A stretch of DNA of 64,000 nt from a virus, in the IMG/VR virus record IMGVR_UViG_3300018933_000004, positions 1-64,000 of that record; one strand, written 5' to 3'. The translations under genes were made by a program, and so were the position numbers. Below, piece after piece: positions 43,204 to 63,136 of the stretch. The notes below the pieces were generated by a model. That model had not been told where the DNA came from and made no database searches. It saw nothing but the letters and a program-made list of their open reading frames with translations. Numbering within the stretch: the first letter of the stretch is position 1; each line of letters starts with the position of its first letter.

Positions 43204-43232
43204 TTGCAACGCATCTTTGGATGCGTTACGGT
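43204..43232 (+). promoter_or_regulatory. Palindromic-spacer promoter, member 1
   Basis: TTGCAA (43204-43209), 17 bp, TACGGT (43227-43232). AACGCATC-TTTG-GATGCGTT (43208-43227) is a perfect dyad filling the spacer; GGGGG follows the -10. Shared with 58781, 59785 and 63107. Confidence 0.8.
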
Positions 43233-43272
43233 GGGGGCGTTCCCTTGTCCAGCAACATGAAGGAGGCGCCCT

Positions 43273-43773
43273 GTGGCTCCCAAAAAGCATCCGCCGCGCA
43301 GGACTCAGGGCGTCAACCCGTACCTGGTCGACATGACCGAGATCCCTCAGACCCCGGCCATCACCGCCGTGCACGAGATCGCCAAGCTGGCCTTCCAGGT
43401 CAGCCAGCTCCACGAGTCACTCGGCGAACTCGTCATCGACGGCACCGAGCTCGGCCTGGCCGAAGGCCAGATGCAGAGCCACGTCATCCGCGCCCAGGGC
43501 AGGCCCTTCAGCTGGCGCTCCCAGCTGACCAGGATCCTGGAGAGGGATCGCGGGTACGACTCCTCCCAGCCCTGGCGCGAGCGCACCAAGGACATCAGGC
43601 CCGAGGAGATCCCCTCCTACCTCAGCCCAGAGTCCGTCGCCGCCATCCGCGAGGGCGTCCAGGCCCTGGCCCGGGTGATCGCGGACGTCGAGGAGGCCCG
43701 CAAGAGGGAGTACCCGGCCGTCCACGCCCGCGCCAAGGCAGCCATCGAGGGCGTCTCCGCCAAGGCCAGCTGA
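43273..43773 (+). CDS. Hypothetical phage protein
   Basis: 166 residues; GTG 43273 with AAGGAGG at 43260-43266. Basic N terminus (APKKHPPRRTQG), then helical segments (AVHEIAKLAFQVSQLHESL, SVAAIREGVQALARVI). Controlled by the palindromic promoter at 43204-43232. Not recognised. Confidence 0.6.
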   Translation: MAPKKHPPRRTQGVNPYLVDMTEIPQTPAITAVHEIAKLAFQVSQLHESLGELVIDGTELGLAEGQMQSHVIRAQGRPFSWRSQLTRILERDRGYDSSQPWRERTKDIRPEEIPSYLSPESVAAIREGVQALARVIADVEEARKREYPAVHARAKAAIEGVSAKAS

Positions 43774-43872
43774 CAGAACAGCGCCCCCGACAGGGTCCCT
43801 GGTCCGGACCGAGTCGGAGGCGCTGCGGCGAGGCCATCCACCCGAACATCCCGCCTAGGAGCACAAGCAGAC

Positions 43873-44862
43873 ATGGCCACCATCACCAAGAGTACCCGCA
43901 TGGGCGGCGCGCTGTCCCGCACCGACTGGGACAAGACCCTCACCGACGGCGGCATCTACCTCCTCGCCGTCGGCGGCTTCTACGTCGGCTACCAGACCCT
44001 CTACACCCAGGCCCTGCGCGTCGGCTTCCCCGAGGACCAGGCCGTCGTCGTCGCCGCCCTCGCCGACCTCGCCATCCTGCTGTACTCCCGCAAGGCCGTC
44101 CGCGAGGTCAAGGCCGGACGATCCGCCCGCATCATCCGCACCATCGTCGCCCTCTTCTCCCTGGCCACCTTCGCCCTCCAGCTCCGCGCCGCATGGGGCG
44201 ACACCCTCTCCGTCACCTTCCACGCCCTGCCCCCGGCCGTCTGGATCATCGGCCACGAGATGATGCTGCGCGGCCGCCTGCGCGACGCCAAGGCCGCCCG
44301 CCGCACCGCCGAGATCAAAGCAGGCCTGCGCCCCGCCCCCCTGCCACGCATCCGCCGCGCCTGGTGGCTCCTGGACCCGGCCCACACCTTCACCGTCTGG
44401 CGCCTGTCCAAGATGTGGGAGAAGGACCCCGCCACCGTCATCCGCCACGAGGCCGCCAAGCGCCAAGCCGAGGGTAAGGACATCCCCCTCGCCTGGCAGG
44501 GCTTCCTCCTCGACACCCCGGCCCCGGACGCGCCCGTTCGCCACGAGATCTGCGGCGCCGCCACCCTCTTCACGCCCGAGGTCCCCGAGCTGCCCGCGCC
44601 GCCGGTCAGCGCCGTCCTGTACCGACAGTCCAACGACCGCGAAGAAGTCCCGGCCAACGAGGTCGCCGTGTTCCTCCGCACCCTGCCTGTCGCCCCGCTC
44701 AAGGGCCGCCCGAAGGACAAGGCCATGGAGTACATCCGCGAGGTCGAGGCGCTCGGCGCCCAGTACGACATCAAGGTCACCGGCAAGCTCCTCGCCGAAC
44801 TGCTCCAGGTCGACGAGGGCCGCGTCTCCAAGATCCGCAAGGACATGGTCCCCACCCCCTGA
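43873..44862 (+). CDS. DUF2637-like membrane protein with C-terminal HTH
   Basis: 329 residues; leader ATCCCGCCTAGGAG at 43848-43861. Four hydrophobic spans in the first 135 residues (GIYLLAVGGFYVGYQTLY, AVVVAALADLAILLYS, IIRTIVALFSLATFALQL, PPAVWIIGHEMML) follow the DUF2637 layout seen on Streptomyces plasmids. The C-terminal tail ends in an HTH-like segment (TGKLLAELLQVDEGRVSKI). Membrane-bound DNA-binding proteins of this sort are linked to plasmid spread, so this supports a phage-plasmid nature; inference. Confidence 0.55.
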   Translation: MATITKSTRMGGALSRTDWDKTLTDGGIYLLAVGGFYVGYQTLYTQALRVGFPEDQAVVVAALADLAILLYSRKAVREVKAGRSARIIRTIVALFSLATFALQLRAAWGDTLSVTFHALPPAVWIIGHEMMLRGRLRDAKAARRTAEIKAGLRPAPLPRIRRAWWLLDPAHTFTVWRLSKMWEKDPATVIRHEAAKRQAEGKDIPLAWQGFLLDTPAPDAPVRHEICGAATLFTPEVPELPAPPVSAVLYRQSNDREEVPANEVAVFLRTLPVAPLKGRPKDKAMEYIREVEALGAQYDIKVTGKLLAELLQVDEGRVSKIRKDMVPTP

Positions 44863-44880
44863 CCCGCAGTAGCCTGAACA

Positions 44881-44926
44881 GCAGCAGGGCCCAGGAGAAC
44901 GTGACGGATCTCCTGGGCCCTGCTGC
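44881..44926. terminator. 18-bp perfect bidirectional terminator
   Basis: GCAGCAGGGCCCAGGAGA (44881-44898) pairs exactly with 44909-44926 around a 10-nt loop, between convergent genes. Confidence 0.9.
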
Positions 44927-44933
44927 CGCACTC

Positions 44934-45293
44934 TCAGAGGGTGTAGGTGTCCCCGTTCAGCTGGTACAGCTCAACAGCCACCCGGCCCAGCAGATCGTCG
45001 CTGGCGCCCCGGTTGCACATCTCTCCCAGGTCCACCCGGAACTGCCGGATCGCCGCCGTCGAGGGCGCCCACCCGCCGTCCGTGTCCTCAACCGTCCCCC
45101 TGGCACTGGCCAGCAGCGACTCGGCCGCGTCCCACTGCTCGCCGTCGTCCATCCGGCCAGCCCAGTCCGAACACGACCGCGCGCCCGGCGGCACCTCACT
45201 CTGCCCGCCGCCGTCCTCGCCGCCCGGATCTCCGCACGCGGTCACGGTGACCGCCAGCACGACGGCCGAGACGATCAAACCCACTCTGCACAT
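44934..45293 (-). CDS. Secreted lipoprotein
   Basis: 119 residues from ATG 45293, preceded by GGGAGAG; the longer start lacks a Shine-Dalgarno. Signal peptide MCRVGLIVSAVVLAVTVTAC with lipobox VTAC, then Gly-rich linker. The mature part has two further Cys (ARSCSDWAG, GEMCNRG) that may pair. Exported and lipid-anchored on the host membrane; possibly superinfection exclusion, which is inference. Confidence 0.7.
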   Translation of the reverse strand: MCRVGLIVSAVVLAVTVTACGDPGGEDGGGQSEVPPGARSCSDWAGRMDDGEQWDAAESLLASARGTVEDTDGGWAPSTAAIRQFRVDLGEMCNRGASDDLLGRVAVELYQLNGDTYTL

Positions 45294-45365
45294 CGCTCTC
45301 CCCTCCCGCCAAACCCTCCCCGGCCTGGCGGGAGACATTCAACCACCCGCCCCCACCACGAGAAG

Positions 45366-46151
45366 ATGAGCCGCATGACCGCGAAGGCGAAGAAGGCATG
45401 GGACGAGCTGAACAAACGTCAGCAGACCTACATGGAAGCCATCTACCACGCCGACCAGGCCGTCGAGGCAGCCCACCGCAAGGAGGCCGCCCGCACCTGG
45501 AGTAACACCCCCGCCCGCGTATGGCGCCGCCTGCCCTTCAACGGGCCCTACTCTCACATCGCGCCCGCGCTGCGCCACCACAAGGTCTACGACACCGGCG
45601 CCGGAGCCACCCTGGCAGCGCTCCGCGACCGAGGGCTGATCGAGAGCGAGACCTGGACCGGCCTGCTCACCGACCCGGTCTACGTCTGGATCACCCGCGA
45701 GGGGCGGGCGGCCGTACGGGCCGGGCTCGGTCTGCAGTCGGCGCGCACCAGCAAGCCCAAGTGGGCCCTGTCGGAGTGGCTCTGGAAGGAACTGGTCAAG
45801 GTGGCCGCCGCCGGACCCGAGGGCCTCCAGCGCGGAGGGCTCTATGGCGACTCCCACCTCTATCTCTCCAAGGGACATAAAGGCCGCCGGGGCAACCGCC
45901 CCTACGTAGACGGCTCGAACTACCGGTGGGTCACCTACGACGCCTACGTCAGCCTCGGCAGCTCCGAGACGTACAAGAAGTCCGAGCCGGTGTACTACTA
46001 CATCCTCACCGACGAGGGCCGCGCCCACTACGCCGAATACCTGGAGCAGTACCGCGAGCTGTACCCGGACATCGACGCCCCCGACCTACAGGATCCAGGC
46101 GGCCAGGAGGACGAGGAGCAGGACGGAGCCCCAGAAGCCGCCGACCAGTAG
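45366..46151 (+). CDS. Winged-helix-like hypothetical protein
   Basis: 261 residues from ATG 45366. Two parallel halves each carry a wing-like ending (YVWITREGRAAVRAGL and YYYILTDEGRAHYAEYL), suggesting an internal duplication of a winged-helix fold. C terminus acidic (QEDEEQDGAPEAADQ). Divergent from the lipoprotein gene across a 72-bp region with the CTCCCGCCA/TGGCGGGAG dyad (45303-45334). Possibly a regulator. Confidence 0.55.
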   Translation: MSRMTAKAKKAWDELNKRQQTYMEAIYHADQAVEAAHRKEAARTWSNTPARVWRRLPFNGPYSHIAPALRHHKVYDTGAGATLAALRDRGLIESETWTGLLTDPVYVWITREGRAAVRAGLGLQSARTSKPKWALSEWLWKELVKVAAAGPEGLQRGGLYGDSHLYLSKGHKGRRGNRPYVDGSNYRWVTYDAYVSLGSSETYKKSEPVYYYILTDEGRAHYAEYLEQYRELYPDIDAPDLQDPGGQEDEEQDGAPEAADQ

Positions 46152-46517
46152 CAGGGCAGCGCGGACGTACGGGTGGTGCGGTGTGTGGCGGGTCACGGCG
46201 TCCAGTGTGCCCTGGAATCTCCGGCTCCACCGAACGGGCCGGGAAAGGCCGAAGGCCCCCGAACGAGTCAACGGGGGCCTTCGGCTGCTTGGGCGCCTTG
46301 AGAGGTGCCTTCAGCGTTGCGATCCTCGCCCTGGGCGGATGGCTGTCTGCAACACCCCGCATCGGCGGGGACAACTGCAAGCAGTCAGCCGGGACATCCC
46401 CGCTGACGCGGGGGAATCACCTCACGGCGGCAAGGTGACCGGCCCGGTCCCAGGGCCCGTGCCGGTAAAAAGAACTCTAGCGGCTCCGGGCTGTTGGTGC
46501 GGGCGAGTTGGAGAGAT
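46152..46517. other. Intergenic region with terminator and CRISPR-repeat-like hairpins
   Basis: No gene. Terminator at 46248-46285. Then CCCCGC-ATCG-GCGGGG (46355-46370) and CCCCGC-TGAC-GCGGGG (46398-46413); the latter sits in GGGACATCCCCGCTGACGCG (46391-46410) and continues to AATCAC, very like a type I-E CRISPR repeat. Confidence 0.55.
46248..46285. terminator. Bidirectional terminator
   Basis: GCCGAAGGCCCCCG and its exact complement with a 10-nt loop; downstream of the gene ending at 46151. Confidence 0.85.
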
Positions 46518-47939
46518 TCACTCTGCGGGGTGTCGGCGTCCCCGAAGGAAGGGGTAGCGCACTTCAAGGCCGAGGATGACAGTCGGCGGCCGCTGCAGGT
46601 ACCGCCCCCACAGCGTCTCGTCCCGGTCCTGGCTGGGGCCGCGAACCGGCGCAGCTGCGGAGCTTTTCGTGGATCCCTCGTAGTTGTTGCAGGCTGCACA
46701 CAGCAGGCCACGGACGAGTCCGGTGTCGTGGTCGTGGTCTTCGTGGTGCTCGGTACGGCCGGGGAGTATGCCGCACATCGCGCACCGGTTCTGGTGGAAG
46801 GCGAGGAGCCGGTCGACGGGGTGCTGGTCAGGGTCGTACGGCGGCACGGGCCAGGACCAGCAGTCGGGTTCGTAGCTCGCCCAGCGCTGCTCCCAGTCGT
46901 CCCAGCGCTGCTGGTACGCCCGGCACTCGGGGCAGGTGTCTGCCTCTTCGGGGGTGCGGTGGGCGTGCATGGGACTGGCGCCGAGGGTCTCTTCCAGGTC
47001 GCGCTGCATGCGCAGGGCGAGAGGAAGGTCTGTGGGCTGGGGGGTGTCGGTCCAGGTGCCGTCGCCCGCGCGGTGGCGGCGCTTGACGGTCGTGAGGGCG
47101 GCGGGCAGGCCGTCGGTGAAGGGAGTCGGGGAGAGGGCGATCTGGTCGGGTGTGACGCGGTCGGGCAGCAGCCGGTTGTCGCCTGCCGCGAGGACGGCGC
47201 GCAGCGCGGCGGCGGGGGTGACGTGGGGGTCGAGGCGGGCGCCGCTGCGGGAGGTGATGAGGGGTTCGGTGGGGTCGTCGGTGGGTGAGGGGACGCGGTG
47301 GGGGAGGTAGGCGCGGATGGCCCGTTCGAGCTCGCGGCTGATGCGGTAGACCTTGACGCCCTCGCCCTTGGGGAAGGGGGCTCGGACCTGCGGGGGGCGG
47401 TTGTCGAGGAGGGGGATGCTGTCGAGGTTGAGGCCGACGATCTGCCGGGGGCGGAAGCCGTCGAGCATGGCGTAGACGAGTGTCTTGTCGCGGTGGCCGT
47501 GGCGGGCGCCGCTGGCGGCGTGCAGCCGGGCGAGGAAGGCGATGGCGATGGTCTGGCGGCGGTCGAGGGCGGGGGTACGGGGCAGGTCGGTGGTGCGCAG
47601 CCGGGCGGGGTCGAAGGGCATCTCGTCCAGGCGGCCGGTGCGGACGGCGTAGTCGTAGAAGCTGGACAGGGCGCTGAGGCGGCGCATGCGGCTGTGGGCT
47701 GAGCCCTTGAGGCGGTCGCGGGCGCGGCGGCTGTGGGTGGCGAAGTCGGCCCAGGTCTGGACGTGGGCCTCGCTGGCGTTCCAGGCGCCGATGCCCATGG
47801 CGTCCTCAATGAAGTCGAGCCAGGCGGTGACGTCCTCGCGGTAGCGGGCGGGCGTGGTGCCCTGGAAGGCGCGGTCCTGACGGCCGCGCTGGTGCTCGGT
47901 GAGCCACTCTTCCATGACGGCGTAGGGGTCGTCGGCCAA
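46518..47939 (-). CDS. Fusion of a degenerate tyrosine-recombinase-like region and endonuclease VII/HNH
   Basis: 473 residues; TTG start at 47939 with GGGGAGGAT upstream. The N-terminal 110 residues look like a phage-integrase core-binding domain (DRLKGSAHSRMRRLSALSS). LDGFRPRQIVGLNLDSI resembles the first catalytic Arg motif, but HxxR and the Tyr are not seen. The C terminus is endonuclease VII-like: NRCAMCGILPGRTEHHEDHD, HDTGLVRGLLCAACNNYEG. A zinc pair CPECRAY precedes it. Probably a structure-specific nuclease using the recombinase-like part to bind DNA. Promoter lies in the left arm of the inverted repeat upstream. Confidence 0.7.
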   Translation of the reverse strand: MADDPYAVMEEWLTEHQRGRQDRAFQGTTPARYREDVTAWLDFIEDAMGIGAWNASEAHVQTWADFATHSRRARDRLKGSAHSRMRRLSALSSFYDYAVRTGRLDEMPFDPARLRTTDLPRTPALDRRQTIAIAFLARLHAASGARHGHRDKTLVYAMLDGFRPRQIVGLNLDSIPLLDNRPPQVRAPFPKGEGVKVYRISRELERAIRAYLPHRVPSPTDDPTEPLITSRSGARLDPHVTPAAALRAVLAAGDNRLLPDRVTPDQIALSPTPFTDGLPAALTTVKRRHRAGDGTWTDTPQPTDLPLALRMQRDLEETLGASPMHAHRTPEEADTCPECRAYQQRWDDWEQRWASYEPDCWSWPVPPYDPDQHPVDRLLAFHQNRCAMCGILPGRTEHHEDHDHDTGLVRGLLCAACNNYEGSTKSSAAAPVRGPSQDRDETLWGRYLQRPPTVILGLEVRYPFLRGRRHPAE

Positions 47940-48284
47940 GGTGATCCTCCCCGGATACAGCTTCTTTAGACAATTGCCAAGCCATCACCCTAGATGCCGT
48001 CGTGGTGCCCGTGCACGGAACAGTGCGGGGCGGCGCCGCGCGCGCACTTCTCTGAGAGGGGCGTGGCTCGGCGATTGTCTAAAGAAGCTGTATCCGGGGA
48101 AAACGCGGTGACACCCGGGGTGGTTCACGAAGGATCGACGGCTGGCGGACCGCGTGGCGGAGAACCCGATCCTCCCACGGCCAGCACGGCGAACGCCAGA
48201 AACGCCGCGCCGTATCGTGTGGTCCATGCCCCGGCCTGCGTCAGTTCCTCCCCGACGGCTGACCGCTGCCGATAAGCTCCCTCC
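47940..48284. promoter_or_regulatory. Control region with 26-bp perfect inverted repeat
   Basis: Arms at 47949-47974 and 48074-48099 are exact complements, flanking 99 bp; weaker homology extends about 16 bp inward. On the minus strand TTGGCA (47980-47975), 17 bp, TATCCG forms a promoter for the recombinase-like gene; the right arm has TCGGCG in place of TTGGCA. The interior and the 48100-48284 flank hold no convincing gene. GATAAG at about 48271-48276 may be the -10 of the next gene. Confidence 0.7.
47949..48099. repeat. Long inverted repeat (26-bp arms)
   Basis: The left arm begins CCCCGGATACAG and ends AGACAAT; the right arm is its exact complement. The arms are AT-richer than the surroundings. 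Confidence 0.9.
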
Positions 48285-48698
48285 ATGAGGAGCACCGAGC
48301 CCGATCAGCCCGCCGACCCCGCCGACTTCCCTCCCGAAGTGCGGGACGCCCTGCGCAAGAGGAGTGAGCGCGGCCCCGTGGTCGATATGGCCACAGGCGA
48401 GCGCGTCGCCGAGGACGGCCGCCTGGTCTCCGACGAGCAGCTGGTCGCCTGTCTCGAATGCGCCCGCGCCATCGCCCTGGGCTGGTGGGGCGCCATCGCA
48501 CGCCACTTCGGCAATCCCGATGCCCCTGTCTGCGCCCTGTGCGGCGAAGGCGAAGCCACCCTCACCCCCACCCAGTGGTTCGCCCAGGTCACCCAGCTCA
48601 TGCAGGCTCACATCGCCGCCGGGAAGCACCACAGCTGGCGTGAGGACTCTCTCACGCGCCTCGGCATCGCCAGCCCGGGAGCAGACGGCCGTGGATGA
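48285..48698 (+). CDS. Hypothetical protein with Cys motifs
   Basis: 137 residues; ATG 48285 about 9 nt after a GATAAG -10-like hexamer, so possibly leaderless. LVACLECARAIALGWW and APVCALCGEGEATLTP give a four-Cys zinc site. Stop overlaps the next start by 8 nt. Function unknown. Confidence 0.55.
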   Translation: MRSTEPDQPADPADFPPEVRDALRKRSERGPVVDMATGERVAEDGRLVSDEQLVACLECARAIALGWWGAIARHFGNPDAPVCALCGEGEATLTPTQWFAQVTQLMQAHIAAGKHHSWREDSLTRLGIASPGADGRG

Positions 48699-49065
48699 CG
48701 TCGACCTCCTGCAGCACGCCACCCGCTTGCACAACGAGTGGCAGCACACGGCCTACCTCACCCTCGGCCGTCTGCTCAGCCGTGCTCACCGGGACGGCCT
48801 GCCCCCGCTCGAATGGACTGTCCTGCCCCACGGCGCGCTGCGCGGCGAGGTGCCCCACCGCGACTCTCGCGGTGAGGAGTACACCCCGGCGACGGGCCTG
48901 GCACTGTACGAGCGCTGGTGTGCCTACCTCGGGCCGGTCAAGCATGAGAAGGACAGGGTCTACTCCTTGCTGGGCAAGACGATCAAGACCGCGCGGGCCA
49001 GTGGCGCCCAGCCGTGGATGAAGGACACTCACATCGTCCTCCGCGTCGAGCTACGCGAGGAATGA
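48691..49065 (+). CDS. Hypothetical protein
   Basis: 124 residues from GTG 48691. Mixed alpha/beta; LQHATRLHNEWQHTAYLTL at the start and THIVLRVELREE at the end. Translationally coupled to the upstream Cys protein. Similar short proteins occur on Streptomyces elements; no motif recognised. Confidence 0.55.
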   Translation: MDDVDLLQHATRLHNEWQHTAYLTLGRLLSRAHRDGLPPLEWTVLPHGALRGEVPHRDSRGEEYTPATGLALYERWCAYLGPVKHEKDRVYSLLGKTIKTARASGAQPWMKDTHIVLRVELREE

Positions 49066-49079
49066 CACCACCGGCGCGG

Positions 49080-49113
49080 CGATAGTCTGAGCCCACTCCA
49101 TCCCGCCAAGGAG
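49080..49113 (+). promoter_or_regulatory. Candidate -10 and leader box
   Basis: GATAGTCT at 49081-49088 followed by TCCCGCCAAGGAG at 49101-49113, which includes the Shine-Dalgarno for ATG 49120. Confidence 0.55.
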
Positions 49114-49119
49114 ACGCTC

Positions 49120-49638
49120 ATGAAGCCGCTGTCCGAGGAGGAACCCGTGACAGCCAAAGCACACATCCCCACCCGCATGTGCCCGCACCCCTGGTGCCGC
49201 CCCGTCCACGGCGTCACCGCCGCCATGGTCGTCCTCGCCCTGCTCCCCTCCCTGGGGAACATCTGGCTCTGGATCGCCCTGCCCGCGCTCGGCGTCCTCG
49301 TGTACGCCCTTGTCCGGCTGCTGGTCGACCGCAACGCCGACCGTGATCAGGAGCACCGCGAGGAGATCGCCGCCCGGGACGGCATTCAGCTCGCCCGCCG
49401 GGCCATCCGCCCGGCCTGGGCCCGTGCTGCCGTCACCCTCGACATCCTGCTCCTGTTCGGCTCCGCCGCCGTCCTCGCCTTGACCCTGAGCACCGACCCC
49501 AGCCTCCCCGCAGAAGGACTCCAGGCGACCCTGAGCGACCTCCCCCTCTTGCTGCCCCCGCTGGCGCTGATCCTCGTCATCGAGTACTGCCACAAGAAGG
49601 CCACGGTCGTTGAGCAGCCCGTCGTCGGCAAGGGGTAG
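49120..49638 (+). CDS. Four-TM membrane protein
   Basis: 172 residues. Hydrophobic spans VTAAMVVLALLPSLG, IWLWIALPALGVLVYALV, VTLDILLLFGSAAVLALTL and LPLLLPPLALILVIEY, with a charged cytoplasmic loop (DRNADRDQEHREEIAARD). Cys/His near the N terminus (MCPHPWCRPVHG). Unknown function. Confidence 0.6.
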   Translation: MKPLSEEEPVTAKAHIPTRMCPHPWCRPVHGVTAAMVVLALLPSLGNIWLWIALPALGVLVYALVRLLVDRNADRDQEHREEIAARDGIQLARRAIRPAWARAAVTLDILLLFGSAAVLALTLSTDPSLPAEGLQATLSDLPLLLPPLALILVIEYCHKKATVVEQPVVGKG

Positions 49639-49647
49639 GACGTCAGC

Positions 49648-49704
49648 GGCCCCGCCGGAGCGCACCATCGGGGGGGGAGGATCGTACGCAGCATCGGCGG
49701 GGCC
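49648..49704. terminator. Long-loop GC hairpin
   Basis: GGCCCCGCCG and CGGCGGGGCC (10 bp, perfect) just after the membrane-protein stop; large loop. Confidence 0.5.
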
Positions 49705-49749
49705 TGGGGAGCGTGTACCCGGGTCTCGTTTGTTCATGCGCGCGCACGA

Positions 49750-49803
49750 CAGACCCCGCTCCTGCGCCACAGAGGAGGGGTGGGGGCGCAAGAGCGGGGT
49801 CTG
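49750..49803. terminator. 12-bp nested terminator between convergent genes
   Basis: CAGACCCCGCTC pairs with GAGCGGGGTCTG; inner TGCGCC/GGCGCA. Likely serves the leftward gene ending at 49852. Confidence 0.75.
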
Positions 49804-49851
49804 GCTCTGGGGGGTCAGCTCATGGGGACTTGGCGTTCAGCGGTGGTCGCG

Positions 49852-50049
49852 TCAGCTGGCATTGCATTGCGCGCACGGGATGGAGATGGGCTCCTTGGTT
49901 TCGGGGTTGACCATCATGATGGTGCCCAGGCCGTGCAGGCATGCGGGGCAGGGGTGGACGGGGCCGCGCCGGACGCGTTCCTGCTGCATGTGGCTCCACC
50001 TCTCAACCAGGTCCGCGTAGCGGGGGTCGATCCATGTGGTTCCGTCCAT
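49852..50049 (-). CDS. 65-residue zinc-ribbon-like protein
   Basis: ATG preceded by GGGAGGGAAC. Cys-x2-Cys pairs HPCPACLHG and IPCAQCNAS flank 20 residues, a compact zinc ribbon. Function unknown; 66 bp downstream of the next leftward gene. Confidence 0.6.
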   Translation of the reverse strand: MDGTTWIDPRYADLVERWSHMQQERVRRGPVHPCPACLHGLGTIMMVNPETKEPISIPCAQCNAS

Positions 50050-50115
50050 GTTCCCTCCCGGTGCCGGGTACCGAGTGTATGGCTTTCGGTACCCGGCGTG
50101 ATGGGTGTTGCGGAA

Positions 50116-55276: not shown

Positions 55277-55597
55277 CTACAGGCTCAGGAAGCCGTGCTT
55301 GCGCAGGAGCGCCGCCACGGCGTCGGGCTCCATGCCGAGGTCGGTGGCGAGTCCTTCCGGGGACCTGGCGGGACGCCCTCGTGAGTACGTGCCGTCGCCC
55401 TGCCGCGATTCCAGCCAGCCGTCGCGCTTGAGGAGTTCCAGGGCTCGCACAACTGTCGGCCGGGACATGCCGTACTCCTGCGCCAGCCATGTCTCGCTGG
55501 GGATGCGGGTGCCCGGCGGGTACGTGCCCGCCTTGATGTCCTGCTGGAGACGCTGTGCCAGCGCCAGGTACTTCGGTGGGGTCATCTCGTAGGCCAT
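55277..55597 (-). CDS. GntR-family transcriptional regulator
   Basis: 106 residues from ATG 55597 (an ATG at 55618 is possible). N-terminal winged helix YLALAQRLQQDIKAG, IPSETWLAQEYGMSRPT, VVRALELLKRDGWL is typical GntR. The ligand domain is reduced to about 35 residues, so it may be a constitutive repressor, as KorSA-type plasmid regulators. Flanked by palindromes on both sides; probably controls itself and the integrase operon. Confidence 0.85.
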   Translation of the reverse strand: MAYEMTPPKYLALAQRLQQDIKAGTYPPGTRIPSETWLAQEYGMSRPTVVRALELLKRDGWLESRQGDGTYSRGRPARSPEGLATDLGMEPDAVAALLRKHGFLSL

Positions 55598-55622
55598 GCG
55601 CGCACCCTTGGTCATCAAGTCA

Positions 55623-55658: not shown

Positions 55659-55688
55659 CAACTATCGAGGTCCGGCAGGCGAACGAAA

Positions 55689-55719: not shown

Positions 55720-55821
55720 CTGCTCGCGCCCGCCGTGGGGAATTGCTGCGCCCGGCGTACCGGCGGGTTCCCAGCGTCGGTGTCCGGCGAGCCTGCGGGC
55801 CGACGTGGAACCTTCCCCACG

Positions 55822-55896: not shown

Positions 55897-56114
55897 AGTA
55901 CCGGCTCAAGGGCGGCGGCACAGCTTCTCCACGACGCCTTCACGCCAGGTACCGCAACCACGTTCGAGCACCCGTCGTTGACGTTGTCGGCGGCATAGTC
56001 ATGGCCGTTCCACGCCTCGAACGAAGGTTCGATAACGTGGGGCGCAGGAGGAGGGAGGTGGCCCGAGCCGTCCGAGCGCAGGATCGCTCTCACAGAACTG
56101 TGTCGACATCAAGA

Positions 56115-56160
56115 GGTTGAGAAGTTGAGGGTCGCTCAACATGCACTCAACCTGCTCAAA
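56115..56160. promoter_or_regulatory. Cluster of five TTGAG half-sites
   Basis: GGTTGAG, GTTGAG, GCTCAAC, CTCAAC and GCTCAAA within 46 bp form nested dyads (AGGTTGAG/CTCAACCT and GTTGAG/CTCAAC). Probable binding site for a dimeric regulator. Confidence 0.6.
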
Positions 56161-56321
56161 CGTTGCACCCGCCCCCTGCTTGGGATAGGTTCCGGATGCC
56201 TTGACATTCAACTATCTGCCTCGATGTGTCGTGAGATCGCCCGGCACCCGCCACCGGGCGAATAACACCATCGAGAGAAGTAGGCGATACCTCCCGCACA
56301 TTTCGAGAGAAAAGGCAGGCA

Positions 56322-56798
56322 ATGAGTGGGGAGTCCATTGCCGAAAATGGTTCAGAATCCCGCCCTGAATCATTTCGGCACGAGTATAGAAAAACCCCGA
56401 AGCGTGCATTCCTGATGGGAGCCTGCGGCCTTGTGCTGGGACTCTTCGCCGGGTATTCGATCGGGGCCGAGTCCATTCCCCCGGCCGCGCTGCCGATACC
56501 CGGCAGCGCCCGCACTCTTCAGCAGCCCACCGAGGATCTGATCCCCGGTGACGGTACCTTCCTCGTCGGCACCGAGGAGGAACCGGCCGACGTCCAGCCG
56601 GGCCTGTACCGGTCCTCGGGCAACGTCACCCCGTGCACCTGGCGCCGAGCCAAGGATGCCACCGGGGAGAGCGACTCCATCATCGCCCGTGACACCTCGC
56701 TCGGAGATGCCTACGTCCAGCTCCAGGGCGGGGAGTTCTTCGACAGCACCGACTGCACCACCTGGCGTCGTGTGCCGTCCTTCGCCGAGCACGGCTGA
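56322..56798 (+). CDS. Membrane-anchored exported protein of Streptomyces type
   Basis: 158 residues; AGGCAGG-type Shine-Dalgarno. One TM span at about 29-48 (FLMGACGLVLGLFAGYSIG), so N-in and C-out. External domain: DVQPGLYRSSGN, PCTWRRAKDATG, IIARDTSLGDAYVQL, STDCTTWRR, a family widespread in Streptomyces with one disulfide. Lower GC at the 5' end suggests transfer. Confidence 0.65.
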   Translation: MSGESIAENGSESRPESFRHEYRKTPKRAFLMGACGLVLGLFAGYSIGAESIPPAALPIPGSARTLQQPTEDLIPGDGTFLVGTEEEPADVQPGLYRSSGNVTPCTWRRAKDATGESDSIIARDTSLGDAYVQLQGGEFFDSTDCTTWRRVPSFAEHG

Positions 56799-56842
56799 GG
56801 GGTGTTGAGGAACGGCCCCGCCTGCCTGATGCTGGAACAGAC

Positions 56843-56875
56843 GACGCCCCGGGCAACTCATCTGCCCGGGGCGTC
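56843..56875. terminator. Bidirectional terminator
   Basis: GACGCCCCGGGCA pairs exactly with TGCCCGGGGCGTC; between convergent genes. Confidence 0.9.
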
Positions 56876-56903
56876 GCTGTATGCGCGGCCGTTCCGCCCT
56901 ACG

Positions 56904-57107
56904 TCAGCCGGTCACGCCGCCGACGAACGCCGACCACGCGGCCGGGGAGACGGTGACGATGGGGCTCTTGGCGACGTCCTTGCTGTCGCGGATGTCGACC
57001 GCCGTGACGGCGCCGCCCGCCAGCTCCTTGCGCGTCTCGATGCAGGCCTCGCCGGACCCGCCGCTGTAGGAGGACTTCATCCACGGAGTGGTGCGCTTCT
57101 CGGTCAT
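56904..57107 (-). CDS. DUF397 protein
   Basis: 67 residues. WMKSSYSGGSGEACIE, VDIRDSKDVAKSPIV and SPAAWSAFVGG are the DUF397 signature. These small proteins partner Scr1-type XRE regulators, and the XRE gene lies 24 bp upstream on the same strand. Confidence 0.92.
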   Translation of the reverse strand: MTEKRTTPWMKSSYSGGSGEACIETRKELAGGAVTAVDIRDSKDVAKSPIVTVSPAAWSAFVGGVTG

Positions 57108-57131
57108 GCTGTACCTCTTCCAATCTCGTTG

Positions 57132-58004
57132 TCAGCCCACAAGTTGCTTGCGGGCCTCGTGCAAGTATCGACGACTGTCGGCCGGTGACAACGCCTGGCC
57201 CTGGAGAGATTCGTATCTGACTCGATATGAACGGACTCGTTCCTCATCGTCGATGAACAAGCCATCTCCGTACCCTTCGCGGAACACCATGTCAACGTTG
57301 ACGTCGAATGTCAGGATGCTGAACGACCCCGACAGTCCTGAGTGCAGACCGGTATTCATGGGGAGCACCTGGATCTGGACCTGGGTCTCCCCCAGGTTGA
57401 GCAGGTGCTGGATCTGGTCTGCGTGAGCCCTCTTGTCGCCCGGCCGGGGCGGCGTCATCACCGCAGCCTCACCGAGGACGGCCCAGATGCGCGGAGGCAG
57501 CGGATTCTCGCGCCGCAGGAGGTCCTTTCGGGCCTCGCGCAGCTTGAGCAGGTCCGCCTGACGGCTGCTGTCGACGGGGTGCACCGTCGCATCCGTGCTG
57601 ATGACGGCCTGGGAGTACTCCTTCGTCTGGAAGAGGCCGTATATGACGTCCGGCTCGAAGACGCGCATGCCCTCGCACAGCCACTCCGCGCTGGCGTAGT
57701 CACTGAACGTCGGGCCGGGCGTGTTGTCGAACGTCGTCCAGGGGCCTTTCTGCTTGGCCAGCTTGGCCCACTTCAGCCACCTGTCGATCTCTTCCGGGTC
57801 GGTGACCCCGTACAGCTCGGCGTACCGGGGCACCAGATCGGCGCTGACGGCGGCGATCCCTGCCTCGTGCCGGTAGATGGCGGGCACGGACAGCCCCAGC
57901 GCTTCCTTGACGGCCTCGACCTTCACCCCGGCGGCCAGGCGGGCGCGCTTGAGCATGTTGCCGAGGATCAGTCGCCTGATCGTCGGCCGTGCGTTGTATG
58001 CCAC
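57132..58004 (-). CDS. Scr1-family XRE regulator (DUF5753)
   Basis: 290 residues. HTH at about 13-60 (LKRARLAAGVKVEAVKEALG). DUF5753 core: WLCEGMRVFEPDVIYGLFQT, REARKDLLRREN, QVQIQVLPMNTGLHSGLSGS. Known partners are DUF397 proteins and an anti-sigma-type ATPase, both present as neighbours. In Streptomyces such sets influence development and resistance. Confidence 0.92.
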   Translation of the reverse strand: MAYNARPTIRRLILGNMLKRARLAAGVKVEAVKEALGLSVPAIYRHEAGIAAVSADLVPRYAELYGVTDPEEIDRWLKWAKLAKQKGPWTTFDNTPGPTFSDYASAEWLCEGMRVFEPDVIYGLFQTKEYSQAVISTDATVHPVDSSRQADLLKLREARKDLLRRENPLPPRIWAVLGEAAVMTPPRPGDKRAHADQIQHLLNLGETQVQIQVLPMNTGLHSGLSGSFSILTFDVNVDMVFREGYGDGLFIDDEERVRSYRVRYESLQGQALSPADSRRYLHEARKQLVG

Positions 58005-58098
58005 TCATCCTCCCCTGTCGTGGCGCGCTGGGCACAGTCTGCACCCCGGGAGCGGGAGATGACCAACGCCCGTACTGAGGATTATCACCCGGAAGGGC

Positions 58099-58127
58099 TT
58101 GCGTAGATGAGAATTCTCCGCAACGGT
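58099..58127 (+). promoter_or_regulatory. Candidate promoter with palindromic spacer
   Basis: TTGCGT, 17 bp, AACGGT; spacer holds GAGAATTCTC (58109-58118), and GGG follows the -10, as in the TACGGTGGGG family. Confidence 0.55.
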
Positions 58128-58206
58128 GGGTAACAGCCTGCTTGCGCCAGGTACCGCAGAGGCGTGAGCCGGTCTCATCCGCCAACCCTGTCTTGGGAGT
58201 TACCTC

Positions 58207-58758
58207 ATGCACTCCCCGCCTCACCAGGGGCCGCCACCCCTGGGCAATCTGCGCCACATGCGCTACCGCGAGTTCTATCCGCTGCGGGACCAGAGCGTTC
58301 CGCAGGCCCGGCATGAGTTCCGCGCCGCCGCCTTCCGCAGCGACCTGGACGGCGGCGTCGCCGAAGCAGCCGAGATCTGCTTGTCGGAGCTGGCCAGCAA
58401 CGCCGTACAGCACGCCGACGACCCCCGGCCTCGCCGCTGGTTCCATGTCAGCTGCAACGTCCTGGGCGTGTACCGCCGGTACCTGCTGATCGGCGTGCAC
58501 GACGTCGACAGCGGGCACATCCCCCGGATGCCCCGCGTCCCGGTTGACCCCCTCGACGCCTTCGATGACGAGTCCGAGTCCGGGCGCGGGCTGTTGCTCG
58601 TCGCCGGACTGGCCACCGCCGTCCGCATCGAACACGGCCCCGGCGTCAACGGCAAGACGATCTGGTGCCGGTTCGACCTCCCCGTCGGTCCTCCCACGCT
58701 CGGCAACCGGCTTGTGCCCCTCTCCCGCCAGGCCAAGCCCTCCTCCCCCGTCGTCTGA
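58207..58758 (+). CDS. HATPase_c (SpoIIAB/RsbW-like) ATP-binding protein
   Basis: 183 residues. N-box CLSELASNAVQHA (about 58-70), G1-like HDVDSGHIP, and ESGRGLLLVAGLA (about 123-135). This is the GHKL ATPase of anti-sigma-type regulators in Streptomyces; no sensor domain. Divergent from the XRE gene, so the three genes form the usual regulatory trio. Confidence 0.88.
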   Translation: MHSPPHQGPPPLGNLRHMRYREFYPLRDQSVPQARHEFRAAAFRSDLDGGVAEAAEICLSELASNAVQHADDPRPRRWFHVSCNVLGVYRRYLLIGVHDVDSGHIPRMPRVPVDPLDAFDDESESGRGLLLVAGLATAVRIEHGPGVNGKTIWCRFDLPVGPPTLGNRLVPLSRQAKPSSPVV

Positions 58759-58780
58759 CGGAAACCCCGCACCCCCACCC

Positions 58781-58809
58781 TTGTAACGCATCTCGATATG
58801 CGTTACGGT
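58781..58809 (+). promoter_or_regulatory. Palindromic-spacer promoter, member 2
   Basis: TTGTAA, 17 bp, TACGGT then GGGGG. AACGCAT-N6-ATGCGTT (58785-58804) in the spacer. Confidence 0.8.
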
Positions 58810-58870
58810 GGGGGTGCTGTTCGTCGGAGTTGTTTACATCTCGCGCCGCCGACCGCCATTGGCAGGCGCG

Positions 58871-58906
58871 TAGCGTAAACGGCCCGTCAGTAAGGATTCC
58901 CGCCAG
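58871..58906 (+). promoter_or_regulatory. Second candidate -10 and leader box
   Basis: TAGCGT at 58871-58876 then TTCCCGCCAG at 58897-58906. Confidence 0.45.
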
Positions 58907-58931
58907 TCCTTCACCGTCAGGAGCGTCCTTT

Positions 58932-59753
58932 ATGGACCCCGTTTCCCTTGATCAGCTTTTCCATGAGCTGCGTTCCGTGGAGGCGGAAACCGCCACCGTC
59001 TCCGCCGCCGATCTGACGCCCGGTTATGTCATCGCCTCCGGCGTGATGGACCGTCACGTCATCGCCGGAAAGCCGACGTCGGATTCCGTCTCCCGCACTC
59101 TCTCTTTCCCGGCCCGCCACCTCCACGGCGGCCACACCGTCCCGTACGTCGTCGGCGAGCGCGCCCAGGTGCGCGTCTACGCCGCCCGCGTCGGCGCGTC
59201 GACCGTCCGCGAGGTACCCGAGGTCCCGGTGTGCGTCATCCCCGACGCTCCGGCCGTCGGGGACCGCGTCGTCCTCCAGCCCTACGTCGCCCACGCCCTC
59301 GGCGTCGCCGACGTCCGGGAGTTCACCGGCCAGCACTGGGAGACCCTTCGGCCCAGCGGCGCCGACCCCATGTCCGTGACCGTCATGCGCGACATGGTGC
59401 GACCGTCCTCCGTCGGCACCCTCACCGGCTGGTACGTCTACCTGCCCGCCGGTCAGCGCCCGTACCTGTACGCCGACGGCCGCCCGGTGCCCGCGCGGGG
59501 CATCGACGGGCTGACCGAGGGCGATGTCATGCTCGTCCCCGGCGGAGGCCGCCTTCAGGTCGAGGGCATCACCCGGCACGCCGACGGCTTCAGCCTGCGC
59601 CTGCGCGTACTGGTGCCGTCCCGGCACGAGATGCGCCACCTGACCTGGGCCAGCGAGGCCGGTGACCTCGTCGAACACCACGACTCGGGCCTGCGGGGCT
59701 ACCTGTACCCCACCGAGATGCGAGCCGCCGAGCTGACCGCAAAGGCCGCCTGA
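58932..59753 (+). CDS. Hypothetical phage protein
   Basis: 273 residues from ATG 58932. Beta-rich with repeated short strands (GYVIASGVMDRHVIAG, GDRVVLQPYVAHALG, GDVMLVPGGGRLQVEGI), possibly two similar halves. No catalytic motif recognised. Headed by palindromic promoter member 2 and probably strongly expressed. Confidence 0.6.
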   Translation: MDPVSLDQLFHELRSVEAETATVSAADLTPGYVIASGVMDRHVIAGKPTSDSVSRTLSFPARHLHGGHTVPYVVGERAQVRVYAARVGASTVREVPEVPVCVIPDAPAVGDRVVLQPYVAHALGVADVREFTGQHWETLRPSGADPMSVTVMRDMVRPSSVGTLTGWYVYLPAGQRPYLYADGRPVPARGIDGLTEGDVMLVPGGGRLQVEGITRHADGFSLRLRVLVPSRHEMRHLTWASEAGDLVEHHDSGLRGYLYPTEMRAAELTAKAA

Positions 59754-59784
59754 CCTGCGCCTTTAAACAGACTGACCCAACGGC

Positions 59785-59815
59785 TTGACGAACGCATCTC
59801 AAGATGCGCTAGGGT
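59785..59815 (+). promoter_or_regulatory. Palindromic-spacer promoter, member 3
   Basis: TTGACG, 19 bp, TAGGGT then GGGG. CGCATCT-CA-AGATGCG (59793-59808) in the spacer; leader box TTCCCGCCAAGGAG at 59833-59846. Confidence 0.8.
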
Positions 59816-59852
59816 GGGGCCCGTTGAAGTCATTCCCGCCAAGGAGAACGCC

Positions 59853-60671
59853 ATGACCACCACCGAAACCATCGACCCGCGCACCCTCACCGACCGACTC
59901 GGCCGCGAGATCTTCGAGTCCCTCTTCCCGCACGGCGGCCCGGAGATGGGCGCGCACCGCGCCGACCGCCAGGTGCCCGAGGAAGTCCGCCTGCCGAAGG
60001 TCGAGGGACCGCAGGGCGTCAAGGTCGACGACATCGTCCTCGTGGTCGACAACGAGTCCTGGACCAGCACCCTGGACCGCTTCAGCGCCCGCGAGGCCCT
60101 CAAGCACCACGGAACCTGGATCGGCCGGGTCCGCAAGGTCAGCCCCAAGTCGATCGTCGTCGACCACGTCCGCGAGCCGCGCCGCCACAGCTTCAGCGCC
60201 GACCTCGACGACTTCGGCTCGCCTGCCCACAAGGACAACGGCGAGCGCCTGATGTTCAGCCACGCCACTCGGGAGATCGGCCGCATCGGCACGCTGGCCG
60301 AGCTGCGCGAGAAGATCGCCGCCCACCCGAAGCTGGACGAGTGGCGCACCGCGCGCGCCGCCGCCATCGACGTCGCCCAGGCGGAGAACGCCAAGGCCAA
60401 GGCCAACCGCGAGGCCAAGGAGGCCCGCCTGACGACGGTGAAGGCGGCCATCGCCGGACTCAACGAGATCGCGGGCGAGCCCCTGGTCGAGCCGCTGACC
60501 TTCAGCGACACCGTCGTCGGGGTGACCCGATGGCTGCATGAGGGCGACTTCCGTCGGCTGCGCGTCTACCTCACCGGACTCCACGCCCTCGGTCAGCTCA
60601 CCGGCGCCCAGCACGAGCAGGCCCTGAAGCACCTGGACACGATCATCGCGTACGCCAAGGGGGAGAAGTGA
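59853..60671 (+). CDS. Hypothetical phage protein with coiled coil
   Basis: 272 residues; AAGGAG at 59841. The N-terminal half has a small beta domain (VKVDDIVLVVDNESW, GTWIGRVRKVSPKSIVVD). Residues about 160-205 form a charged helix (AENAKAKANREAKEAR). The C terminus is helical. Stop overlaps the next GTG. Confidence 0.6.
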   Translation: MTTTETIDPRTLTDRLGREIFESLFPHGGPEMGAHRADRQVPEEVRLPKVEGPQGVKVDDIVLVVDNESWTSTLDRFSAREALKHHGTWIGRVRKVSPKSIVVDHVREPRRHSFSADLDDFGSPAHKDNGERLMFSHATREIGRIGTLAELREKIAAHPKLDEWRTARAAAIDVAQAENAKAKANREAKEARLTTVKAAIAGLNEIAGEPLVEPLTFSDTVVGVTRWLHEGDFRRLRVYLTGLHALGQLTGAQHEQALKHLDTIIAYAKGEK

Positions 60672-61171
60672 GCGCCCCGCGCGCCTGCCACTCCTGCGGC
60701 CACGACTCGGCGTTCGTCCGGCGGGTGCGCTGCGGTCGCTGCGGCGACCAGGTACACCCGACGTGCCGGGACATCACCGGAACCTGCTACCAGTGCCGTT
60801 ACCGGCAGGCCCATGCGAACGGCATCGTCGGCGACATGCTGCCGCCGGGCCAGGCCGGGGAGGAACCGTTCAAGGGCAACCAGCCCACCACCGTTGCCGA
60901 GGGGCAGCCGCTGCCGAAGCTGGCCACCTACCAGAACCCGTTCGGCGCCAGCGCCAACGCCCTGCGTATCGCCACTGCCGCTCTCTACGCCGGGTGGCAC
61001 GTCGAGGGCTGGGAGAGCGGCAGCGACCGCGTCATGCTGCGGAAGAAGGGCCGGGGCTACCTCCGTCTCACCTTCACCTGCACCGGCCGCCTCATCCGCG
61101 CCGACACCCAGCGGCTGTACCTCACCCCCAACACCAACCGCGTCCTTGAGTACCTGGAGGCGCCAAAGTGA
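60668..61171 (+). CDS. Zinc-finger (treble-clef/RING-like) protein
   Basis: 167 residues from GTG 60668. N-terminal CHSCGHDS, CGRCGDQVHPTC, GTCYQCRYR give eight Cys/His ligands in a cross-brace-like order. The C-terminal domain (LRIATAALYAGWHVEGW, GYLRLTFTCTGRLI) is a separate alpha/beta fold. Function unknown. Confidence 0.6.
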   Translation: MSAPRACHSCGHDSAFVRRVRCGRCGDQVHPTCRDITGTCYQCRYRQAHANGIVGDMLPPGQAGEEPFKGNQPTTVAEGQPLPKLATYQNPFGASANALRIATAALYAGWHVEGWESGSDRVMLRKKGRGYLRLTFTCTGRLIRADTQRLYLTPNTNRVLEYLEAPK

Positions 61172-61455
61172 CCATGCCGCGTAAGAACCCGCCCGCGCCG
61201 GGCAAGTACTGCGACGCCACGAGGACCCGATATCCGGCCCCGTGCAATGACCCCGCCGTGTGGATCGTCTTCTATGCCCACAAGCGCACCGGCGAGAAGA
61301 AGCAGAAGAACGCGTGTGGTGGCCACCTGAACAAGTTGCTGGCCGACCTCGTGCCGGAGGCCGAGTACTCGCGCGAGATGTTCCGCGTTATCCCGTGGGC
61401 CACTGCCCTTGCGGAGTACGACAAACGGACGACCACCACGGCAACCACCGCATGA
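61168..61455 (+). CDS. Hypothetical protein with Cys/His
   Basis: 95 residues; GTGA overlap. KYCDATRTRYPAPCNDPAVW and ACGGHLNKLL suggest a zinc site; Thr-rich C terminus. Stop overlaps the next ATG. Confidence 0.5.
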   Translation: MTMPRKNPPAPGKYCDATRTRYPAPCNDPAVWIVFYAHKRTGEKKQKNACGGHLNKLLADLVPEAEYSREMFRVIPWATALAEYDKRTTTTATTA

Positions 61456-61739
61456 CCACTGAGCAGCAGGAGAGCAGGAACATGAGTGGATTCCCCAGCG
61501 GCAAGCCTGCCGAGCGCTTCACGGGCGCGGGCGCCTATGGGCGTCCCGGGCAGTACGGGAGGGCGCTGCCCGATGACAGCGACATCACGAGCGCGTCCGT
61601 TGCGGACCTGGTCGTGACGTTCTGCTCGGTCATGGAGAGCATGCATCGGACGAACAACACGTCGTCGCTGGCGGACCTCGGCCGGTATGCCGGTCGGCTC
61701 TGGTGGGAGATGACCGGCCGAGGCGTCGAGTTCAAGTGA
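61452..61739 (+). CDS. Hypothetical protein
   Basis: 95 residues from ATG 61452; a second ATG at 61482 is possible but has no better Shine-Dalgarno. Gly-rich middle, helical end (SLADLGRYAGRLWWEM). Less GC-biased third positions than neighbours. Unknown. Confidence 0.5.
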   Translation: MTTEQQESRNMSGFPSGKPAERFTGAGAYGRPGQYGRALPDDSDITSASVADLVVTFCSVMESMHRTNNTSSLADLGRYAGRLWWEMTGRGVEFK

Positions 61740-61987
61740 CCGGCGAGACCTGCGGCGCCGAGCACCCGGAGAAGCCCGGCACGCTGTGCACCCGCGAGCC
61801 GCACCACAACCAGGGCTTCCACGCCGAGCGCCACACCCGCACCATCTGGCCCGCCGACCCGCTGCCCGCTGTGCAGGGCAGCGGCCGGGCTGCCCTCGCC
61901 GCCATCGCGGCCCGCACCACCCGACACCACCACACCGGCCCCGCCAGCGAGGCCGTCACCACCTGGAGAGACCGCCATGGGGACTGA
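61736..61987 (+). CDS. Small Cys/His protein
   Basis: 83 residues from GTG 61736. ETCGAEHPEKPGTLCTREPH then HNQGFHAERH: the same Cys/His pattern as the protein at 50829-51077. Ends 11 nt inside the next gene. Confidence 0.5.
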   Translation: MTGETCGAEHPEKPGTLCTREPHHNQGFHAERHTRTIWPADPLPAVQGSGRAALAAIAARTTRHHHTGPASEAVTTWRDRHGD

Positions 61988-62459
61988 CACCGAGAAGATC
62001 AACGTCACCCGCGACGACATCCTGACCGCACTGGCGAGATACCCCGACAGCCTGCGGACCGTCGCCGACGTCGCCCGTGAGGTCGTCACCCGCATCTACA
62101 ACGTCGAGAAGGTCTACGACGGCAAGAGCGCCATGTGGCACGTGCACCAGGCCAACCTCAAGCGCCTGCTGGCCGACATGGTCGCCGACGGCACGCTCAT
62201 CCGGCGCACGGGCGAGGAGTGGTGGGAGCGCGGGGCGCCGACCTGGCGCGGCCGTGCGAACGGCCACTACTACGTGCTGCCGGAGCAGGCCCGGGTGTGG
62301 CAGGAGGAGGCCGACCAGAAGCGGGATGCGGCGCTCCAGGAGGCGGCCGAGGAGCACGCCCGGCGCGTGCTGGCCGAGCGGCACCCGGAGGAGTTCGCCG
62401 ACCTCGTCCGTGCCTACCGCGAGGAGCACGGCGTGGCCGTCGAGGGGGCGGGCCGGTGA
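61977..62459 (+). CDS. Winged-helix-like hypothetical protein
   Basis: 160 residues. Segment LRTVADVAREVVTRI ... HQANLKRLLADMVADGTLIRR, then GHYYVLPEQAR is a winged-helix layout. The C-terminal half is a charged helix. Possibly a DNA-binding regulator. Confidence 0.55.
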   Translation: MGTDTEKINVTRDDILTALARYPDSLRTVADVAREVVTRIYNVEKVYDGKSAMWHVHQANLKRLLADMVADGTLIRRTGEEWWERGAPTWRGRANGHYYVLPEQARVWQEEADQKRDAALQEAAEEHARRVLAERHPEEFADLVRAYREEHGVAVEGAGR

Positions 62460-63025
62460 TCAGCGACCTGCACACGTCCGAGCCTCTGCCCGAGCTGCAC
62501 CTGAACGCGCTGAACATGAACGTCGGCTCGTTGACCGGCTGGGCCCGTCAGGGCCTGGTCGACTTCGACCCGCCGTATCAGCGTCAGCCGGTGTGGGGCA
62601 TCCGTCGGCGTCAGCGGCTGATCAAGTCGCTGCTGATGGGGCTGCCCGTCGGCGCGATCACGGTCAACCGTCGTGATCACTCCGGCTTCCGGGCGCCGGG
62701 GTACGTCCCGGGAGAGTCGGCGCCGTTCGCCGTCATCGACGGCAAGCAGCGCTGGCAGACGCTGGTGATGTTCGGGAAGGACGAGTTCCCCGTGCCGCGC
62801 TCCTGGTTCGATGAGCGGGCCCTGAGCGCCGTGTACGAGGAGGACGCCGACGGCGGGCAGTGGGTGCGTTACTCCATGCTCGACCTGCGCGGACAGACGC
62901 AGATCGACATGGCCGCGCTGCCCTTCAACGAGGCCCGGGTCGACTCGATCGAGGCGGAAGAGGAGGTGTTCCGCCTGCTCAACACGGGTGGGCTGCTCCA
63001 GGGTGAGGCGGACGAGGACAGGTGA
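62456..63025 (+). CDS. DUF262 (GmrS/ParB-like NTPase/nuclease) single-domain protein
   Basis: 189 residues from GTG 62456. FDPPYQRQPVWGIRRRQRL, LLMGLPVGAITVN, FAVIDGKQRWQTL and EEVFRLLNTGG are the core DUF262 motifs (DGQQR-type centre as DGKQR). The C-terminal HNH (DUF1524) half of GmrSD is absent. May act in defence, counter-defence or DNA binding. Confidence 0.75.
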   Translation: MISDLHTSEPLPELHLNALNMNVGSLTGWARQGLVDFDPPYQRQPVWGIRRRQRLIKSLLMGLPVGAITVNRRDHSGFRAPGYVPGESAPFAVIDGKQRWQTLVMFGKDEFPVPRSWFDERALSAVYEEDADGGQWVRYSMLDLRGQTQIDMAALPFNEARVDSIEAEEEVFRLLNTGGLLQGEADEDR

Positions 63026-63106
63026 GCGGCGGCAGGGGTGTCAGTCCCCCGGCGTACGGTGGCGCTGAGCGTGAATGCTCGGCGCCGCTGGCGTTTCAAC
63101 CCCCGC

Positions 63107-63136
63107 TAGACAGCGCATCTTGAGATGCGCTACGGT
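63107..63136 (+). promoter_or_regulatory. Palindromic-spacer promoter, member 4
   Basis: TAGACA, 18 bp, TACGGT then GGGG. AGCGCATCT-TG-AGATGCGCT (63112-63131) is a perfect 9-bp dyad; leader TCCCGCCAAGGAG at 63147-63159. Confidence 0.85.

What the first reader, a model, noticed from the sequence alone, without database searches (positions are those of the whole stretch)
43204..63136. A promoter family with a palindrome filling the -35/-10 spacer and a TACGGTGGGG -10
Four sites (43204-43232, 58781-58809, 59785-59815, 63107-63136) share the core GCATC-N4-GATGC dyad or a close form, placed between a -35 (TTGCAA, TTGTAA, TTGACG, TAGACA) and TACGGT/TAGGGT followed by GGGG. Related layouts with other palindromes are at 58099-58127 (GAGAATTCTC) and 8143-8172 (ACCCCCTCCAGGGGGT). 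A dyad inside the spacer is the classic place for a repressor or MerR-type activator. The four units are up to 20 kb apart, so this looks like a phage regulon.
Basis: partly seen in the sequence, partly recalled or inferred. Interest (0 to 1): 0.82.

Follow-up and report, generated by a model that had tools for sequence, protein, structure and literature searches.

The report
Shared operator-promoters of a Streptomyces phage-plasmid
A virus that probably lives in Streptomyces as a plasmid carries the same short mirror-image switch inside at least ten of its promoters, and related viruses have swapped that switch for a different one at every promoter, which is what one expects if a single virus protein keeps the whole set turned off.

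Summary
The four sites are real (composite motif: 4 found, 0.02 expected). The parent record (79,454 bp) holds six more: ten in all, every one on the + strand, between genes, and nine of them 29-61 bp ahead of a start codon. The record is part of a roughly 155-kb Streptomyces phage-plasmid family (terminase 87% identical to that of circular plasmid pRLB1-9.1).

Three lineages of that family keep the same layout, with the dyad centre exactly 9 bp before a TAnnnT -10, but each uses its own dyad: ACGCATCT/AGATGCGT, GGGCAACR/YGTTGCCC or ATGCATATC/GATATGCAT. Within a genome the change is concerted over 7-19 sites, including the syntenic site 43211. This points to operators of a lineage-specific phage regulator placed over HrdB-type promoters. 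A repressor fits best, because -35 spacing varies (17, 18, 19), unlike MerR-type activation.

The logic is that of P1 C1 operators, phiC31 CIRs and cluster A stoperators. The regulator was not identified. The XRE-DUF5753 protein (57132-58004) and the unknown product of 43273-43773 remain candidates. The layouts at 58099 and 8143 carry other operators.

The parts
43204..43232 (+). Site 1: -35 TTGCAA 43204-43209, dyad ACGCATCTT/TGGATGCGT 43209-43226, -10 TACGGT 43227-43232; ahead of 43273-43773
   Evidence: syntenic, with a lineage-specific dyad, in all three lineages
58781..58809 (+). Site 2: -35 TTGTAA, dyad 58786-58803, -10 TACGGT 58804-58809; ahead of 58932-59753
59785..59815 (+). Site 3: -35 TTGACG (19-bp spacer), dyad 59792-59809, -10 TAGGGT 59810-59815; ahead of 59853-60671
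63107..63136 (+). Site 4: -35 TAGACA, dyad 63113-63130, -10 TACGGT 63131-63136; ahead of the gene that starts at 63166; syntenic in all three lineages
43273..43773 (+). 166-aa protein of unknown family, first gene after site 1; candidate autoregulated cognate regulator
   Evidence: no Pfam, NCBIfam or PHROG match; 85% identical within lineage B, 36-51% between lineages; helical model, pLDDT 72, no PDB match
57132..58004 (-). XRE HTH_31 + DUF5753 protein (Sco1979-like); second candidate regulator
   Evidence: orthologues in all three lineages
58109..58118 (.). GAGAATTCTC, probable operator of the XRE/HATPase divergent promoter, not a member of the family
   Evidence: kept in lineages A and B although the family dyad differs
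8143..8172 (+). TTGCCA...ACCCCCTCCAGGGGGTATGGT promoter with its own dyad; a single syntenic site
55277..55618 (-). Small GntR-family protein, present only in this record among those compared; its upstream region holds ACTGGTCAACCAGT

Best explanation
Each site is a host-type (HrdB-like) promoter whose spacer holds an 18-bp dyad operator with its centre 9 bp before the -10. One phage-encoded dimeric regulator, most likely the lysogeny (plasmid-state) repressor, binds all of them and blocks polymerase by occupying the spacer and the edges of -35 and -10. When it is lost or inactivated the set of promoters fires together and transcribes the early region rightwards. A strong -10 plus GGG discriminator would let these promoters work with a poor -35. 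Shown: the sites, their fixed geometry, their orientation, their restriction to promoter positions and their lineage-specific switching. Inferred: that they are active promoters, that one protein binds them all, and that it represses.
For: Composite motif far above chance. Over six records, 59 core dyads have TAnnnT at exactly +9 and no other offset has more than 2. All + strand, between genes, mostly 30-50 bp from -10 to start codon with an RBS. Three lineages carry different dyads at the same place, switched at all sites of a genome, while the GCA/TGC of the half-sites stays nearly fixed, as expected for one co-evolving phage regulator. Variable -35 spacing (17: 31, 18: 9, 19: 18) favours steric repression over MerR-type realignment. 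The element is a phage-plasmid, with terminase here and capsid, ParA and circular form in pRLB1-9.1, and so needs a way to silence lytic genes.
Against: No regulator was identified; no transcript-start, binding or expression data were available. Some sites are asymmetric (site 1 in lineage B keeps mainly the right half-site). The two sites in Streptomyces genome contigs have no relative of this phage near them. A host or phage activator cannot be excluded from sequence alone.
Confidence: 0.7

Rival explanations
1. The dyads bind a phage-encoded activator in the spacer, MerR-fashion, that switches on delayed-early genes.
For: Spacer position; 18 sites have a 19-bp spacer, several with consensus TTGACA.
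Against: 31 sites have 17 bp and 9 have 18; 20 sites have no fair -35; no MerR-family protein turned up among the proteins searched.
Confidence: 0.12
2. The dyads are centromere-like sites of a partition protein that also silences nearby promoters (as in N15 or RK2 KorB/KorA).
For: The related plasmid pRLB1-9.1 has ParA and a partner gene; the sites are dispersed palindromes.
Against: A rigid +9 distance to the -10 and a single orientation are not needed for a centromere; the ParA partner is similar in two lineages with different dyads (67%); no site lies near parA.
Confidence: 0.06
3. The sites act mainly as RNA hairpins (terminators or leader elements) and the promoter likeness is incidental.
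For: Read-through RNA of sites 1 and 2 folds at -37.8 and -36.9 kcal/mol; the outer arms at site 1 change in a compensating way in lineages A and B.
Against: Only a minority of sites have the mirrored outer arms; lineage C keeps the dyad and -10 without them; a transcript from the promoter itself would start after the dyad.
Confidence: 0.07

Closest known systems
Phage P1 C1 repressor operators
   Same: Phage-plasmid with about 20 dispersed operators for one repressor (22 per P1 genome; PMC8546580)
   Different: P1 operators are asymmetric 17-mers; here they are dyads locked 9 bp before the -10; regulator unknown here
Cluster A mycobacteriophage operators/stoperators
   Same: 20-30 sites, mostly one orientation, lineage-specific consensus, heteroimmunity (PMC6550527)
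   Different: Most stoperators are not associated with promoters; these are palindromic and all at promoter positions
phiC31 / phiBT1 conserved inverted repeats (CIRs)
   Same: Streptomyces temperate phage; about 15 copies of one palindrome; repressor operators by my own knowledge
   Different: The repeat is CTACTCACGTGAGTAG; the GCATC-N4-GATGC dyad is absent from both phages
RK2 KorA/KorB/KorC regulon
   Same: Plasmid-wide set of dyad operators at promoters (own knowledge; PMC11790492 appeared but was not read)
   Different: No Kor homologue identified; this element is a phage

Membership tests
Dispersed lysogeny-repressor operator system (P1 C1 / L5 type) | Many copies of one motif in one genome at regulatory positions | tested here: met
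   10 sites in this record, 19 in pRLB1-9.1, 9 in G013
Dispersed lysogeny-repressor operator system (P1 C1 / L5 type) | Motif specificity differs between related phages | tested here: met
   Three dyad types in three lineages
Dispersed lysogeny-repressor operator system (P1 C1 / L5 type) | A cognate repressor that confers immunity | not testable with these tools
   Candidates only
phiC31 CIR | The CTACTCACGTGAGTAG repeat | tested here: not met
   The repeat of phiC31 and phiBT1 is a different palindrome and the GCATC dyad is absent from them; a homologue of their repressor c was not searched for
MerR-type activated promoter | Fixed 19-20 bp spacer centred on the dyad | tested here: not met
   17, 18 and 19 bp
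Sigma-70/HrdB promoter | -10 TAnnnT with -35 at 16-19 bp | tested here: met
   -10 largely by definition of the set; -35 matching at least 4 of 6 in 58 of 78 sites
Sigma-70/HrdB promoter | Transcription starts just after the -10 | not testable with these tools
   no transcript data

The most novel reading that the evidence does not exclude
The regulator is the 166-aa product of 43273-43773, a DNA-binding protein of no known family that represses its own promoter and the other operators, and whose specificity has diverged with the dyads in three lineages, defining new immunity groups in Streptomyces phage-plasmids.
Probability: 0.2. Interest if true: 0.65.

Novelty: new member of a known kind. 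Interest (0 to 1): 0.45.

Why it matters
It gives a ready-made regulon map, and a natural three-way specificity swap, for a large and little-studied group of Streptomyces phage-plasmids. It would make immunity groups predictable from sequence, offers a family of compact, probably regulated Streptomyces promoters, and gives a clear route to a repressor that may be of a new type.

Tried and rejected
GntR protein (55277-55618) as regulator: absent from the other records compared and has ACTGGTCAACCAGT upstream. MarR-like protein (window ORF 3756-5201, minus strand): recognition segment SQATAYRHL identical in lineages A and B although the dyads differ. Double XRE-like protein (23003-23638): recognition segments conserved. 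Sigma region 4 protein: 92% identical A to B. ParA partner: see rivals. XRE-DUF5753 is not excluded: its recognition helix varies by lineage (SVPAIYRHE, S(Q/R)PVVYRQE, SKPTLYRYE), but the GAGAATTCTC beside it is shared by A and B. Chromosomal XRE relatives (37% at best) were uninformative. Structure prediction and Foldseek search of the 43273 product: nothing. The A1 profile in 393 Streptomyces genomes: nothing (no positive control in that set). No near relative in INPHARED at megablast level. Rfam on 40000-64000: nothing. Literature searches found no description of this family.

Full report
Observation. The four sites are at the stated places. The dyad core alone is not rare at one mismatch (5 found, 2.98 expected), but dyad plus TAnGGT plus GGG gives 4 matches against 0.02 expected in the window and 8 against 0.01 in the neighbouring 19 kb (one of the 8 is the reverse reading of a site). 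The window is part of a 79,454-bp virus record. In it there are ten sites (43211, 58788, 59794, 63115, 65298, 68612, 70559, 73791, 75683, 77141). All are on the + strand and outside called genes. The distance from -10 to start codon is 29-61 bp, except at site 2 (122 bp). Two sites have TACCGT.

What the element is. The terminase at 35464-37662 has 18 relatives in IMG/VR, several on contigs of 154-157 kb, and is 87% identical to one on the circular plasmid pRLB1-9.1 of Streptomyces sp. RLB1-9. That plasmid carries ParA, a HK97-fold capsid protein, a baseplate protein and integrases. The window has helicases, terminase, a tyrosine integrase, XRE-DUF5753, DUF397, a HATPase and a GntR protein. 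It is therefore read as a fragment of a phage-plasmid, with Streptomyces as the probable host. Its terminase is about 30% identical to those of some large actinophages.

The same layout in relatives, with other dyads. A search for any 9-bp dyad followed directly by TAnnnT gave up to nine sites per genome, and mostly 0-1 (at most 2) with the -10 shifted. Lineage A (this record, G001, G002, G019) uses ACGCATCT/AGATGCGT with TA(C/G)GGT. Lineage B (pRLB1-9.1, G006, G015) uses GGGCAACR/YGTTGCCC with TAGAGT. Lineage C (G012, G013) uses ATGCATATC/GATATGCAT with TAGnnT. Position-weight scans gave 10, 7, 19, 14, 9 and 7 sites in this record, G002 (43 kb read), pRLB1-9.1, G015 (part), G013 and G012 (part), with 0-1 in shuffled sequence. 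Of core-matching dyads in six records, 59 have TAnnnT at +9 and no other offset has more than 2. Two pRLB1-9.1 sites that my own gene caller placed in genes (86311, 104036) lie between genes in the RefSeq annotation. Some lineage C sites were assigned to the minus strand by the near-symmetric matrix; their -10 shows them to be +. G006 and G015 are nearly identical over the stretch read, so the 78 sites are not all independent.

Concerted switching. The isolated site 1 is syntenic in all lineages and precedes orthologous genes, each time with the dyad of its own lineage, though lineage B copies are degenerate in the left half. Site 4 is likewise shared. Across lineages G-C-A in the left half-site and T-G-C in the right stay nearly constant, while the inner and outer bases change. 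The simplest reading is one ancestral operator whose phage-encoded regulator diverged.

Mechanism. The dyad fills the spacer, so a bound dimer would exclude polymerase. Among 58 sites with a fair -35 the spacing is 17 (31), 18 (9) or 19 (18); 20 sites have none. MerR-type activators need a fixed long spacer (general knowledge), so steric repression is preferred. Also from general knowledge, GGG after the -10 suits sigma region 1.2, which can offset a weak -35. P1, also a phage-plasmid, has 22 dispersed C1 operators (PMC8546580), and cluster A mycobacteriophages have 20-30 lineage-specific sites (PMC6550527).

Which regulator? Proteins whose recognition segment is the same in lineages with different dyads are unlikely: the MarR-like protein and the double XRE-like protein. 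The GntR protein is not in the other records and has its own palindrome upstream. Two candidates remain. The XRE-DUF5753 protein lies in the leftward module and its recognition helix differs by lineage, but the palindrome at its own promoter, GAGAATTCTC, is shared by A and B, so it probably binds that. The 43273-43773 product follows a family site in all three lineages and is 85% identical within lineage B but 36-51% between lineages. It has no known family and its helical model matches nothing. Neither is shown to bind. Only three lineages are available, so covariation is weak evidence.

Side layouts. 58099 is the GAGAATTCTC promoter between XRE and HATPase, again with an operator in the spacer. 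8143 is a single promoter with ACCCCCTCCAGGGGGT, present at the same place in pRLB1-9.1 and with another dyad in G013. So operator-in-spacer is used here with at least three operator types.

Noticed in passing
leaders of the sites, e.g. 59835-59840, and relatives: CCCGCC occurs in the leader of 60 of 78 sites, often 6-12 nt after the -10, against about 20-30% of other intergenic leaders; present whatever the dyad. Function unknown.
   Followed up: partly
43185-43260, 58765-58830; also G002 10469, pRLB1-9.1 103341: Some sites are extended mirror dyads (CCCCACCC...GGGTGGGG) that would form a strong RNA hairpin if read through; outer arms at site 1 change in a compensating way. Possible overlapping terminator and promoter.
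   Followed up: partly
L128/L129 (S. fulvoviolaceus contig, joined position 21583) and L130 11828 (S. echinoruber contig): Single perfect copies of the lineage A dyad plus -10 in Streptomyces genome contigs without relatives of this phage; the second is near a GntR-UTRA gene and an XRE-DUF5753 gene.
   Followed up: partly
L107/L108 (G018), 9120, 13665, 27772 and 30524 of the joined stretch: A more distant relative has a repeated AATCATTTTAAAATCATT-like palindrome some 45 bp before a TAGAGT or TACAGT, a different arrangement.
   Followed up: no
L094 19862-21032 (pRLB1-9.1 69862-71032): The related phage-plasmid carries an ATP-grasp protein and a putative ATP-grasp-modified RiPP (tgmA) between its integrases.
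   Followed up: no
46518-47798, minus strand: A protein with a C-terminal endonuclease VII domain and an N-terminal stretch resembling tyrosine recombinases.
   Followed up: no
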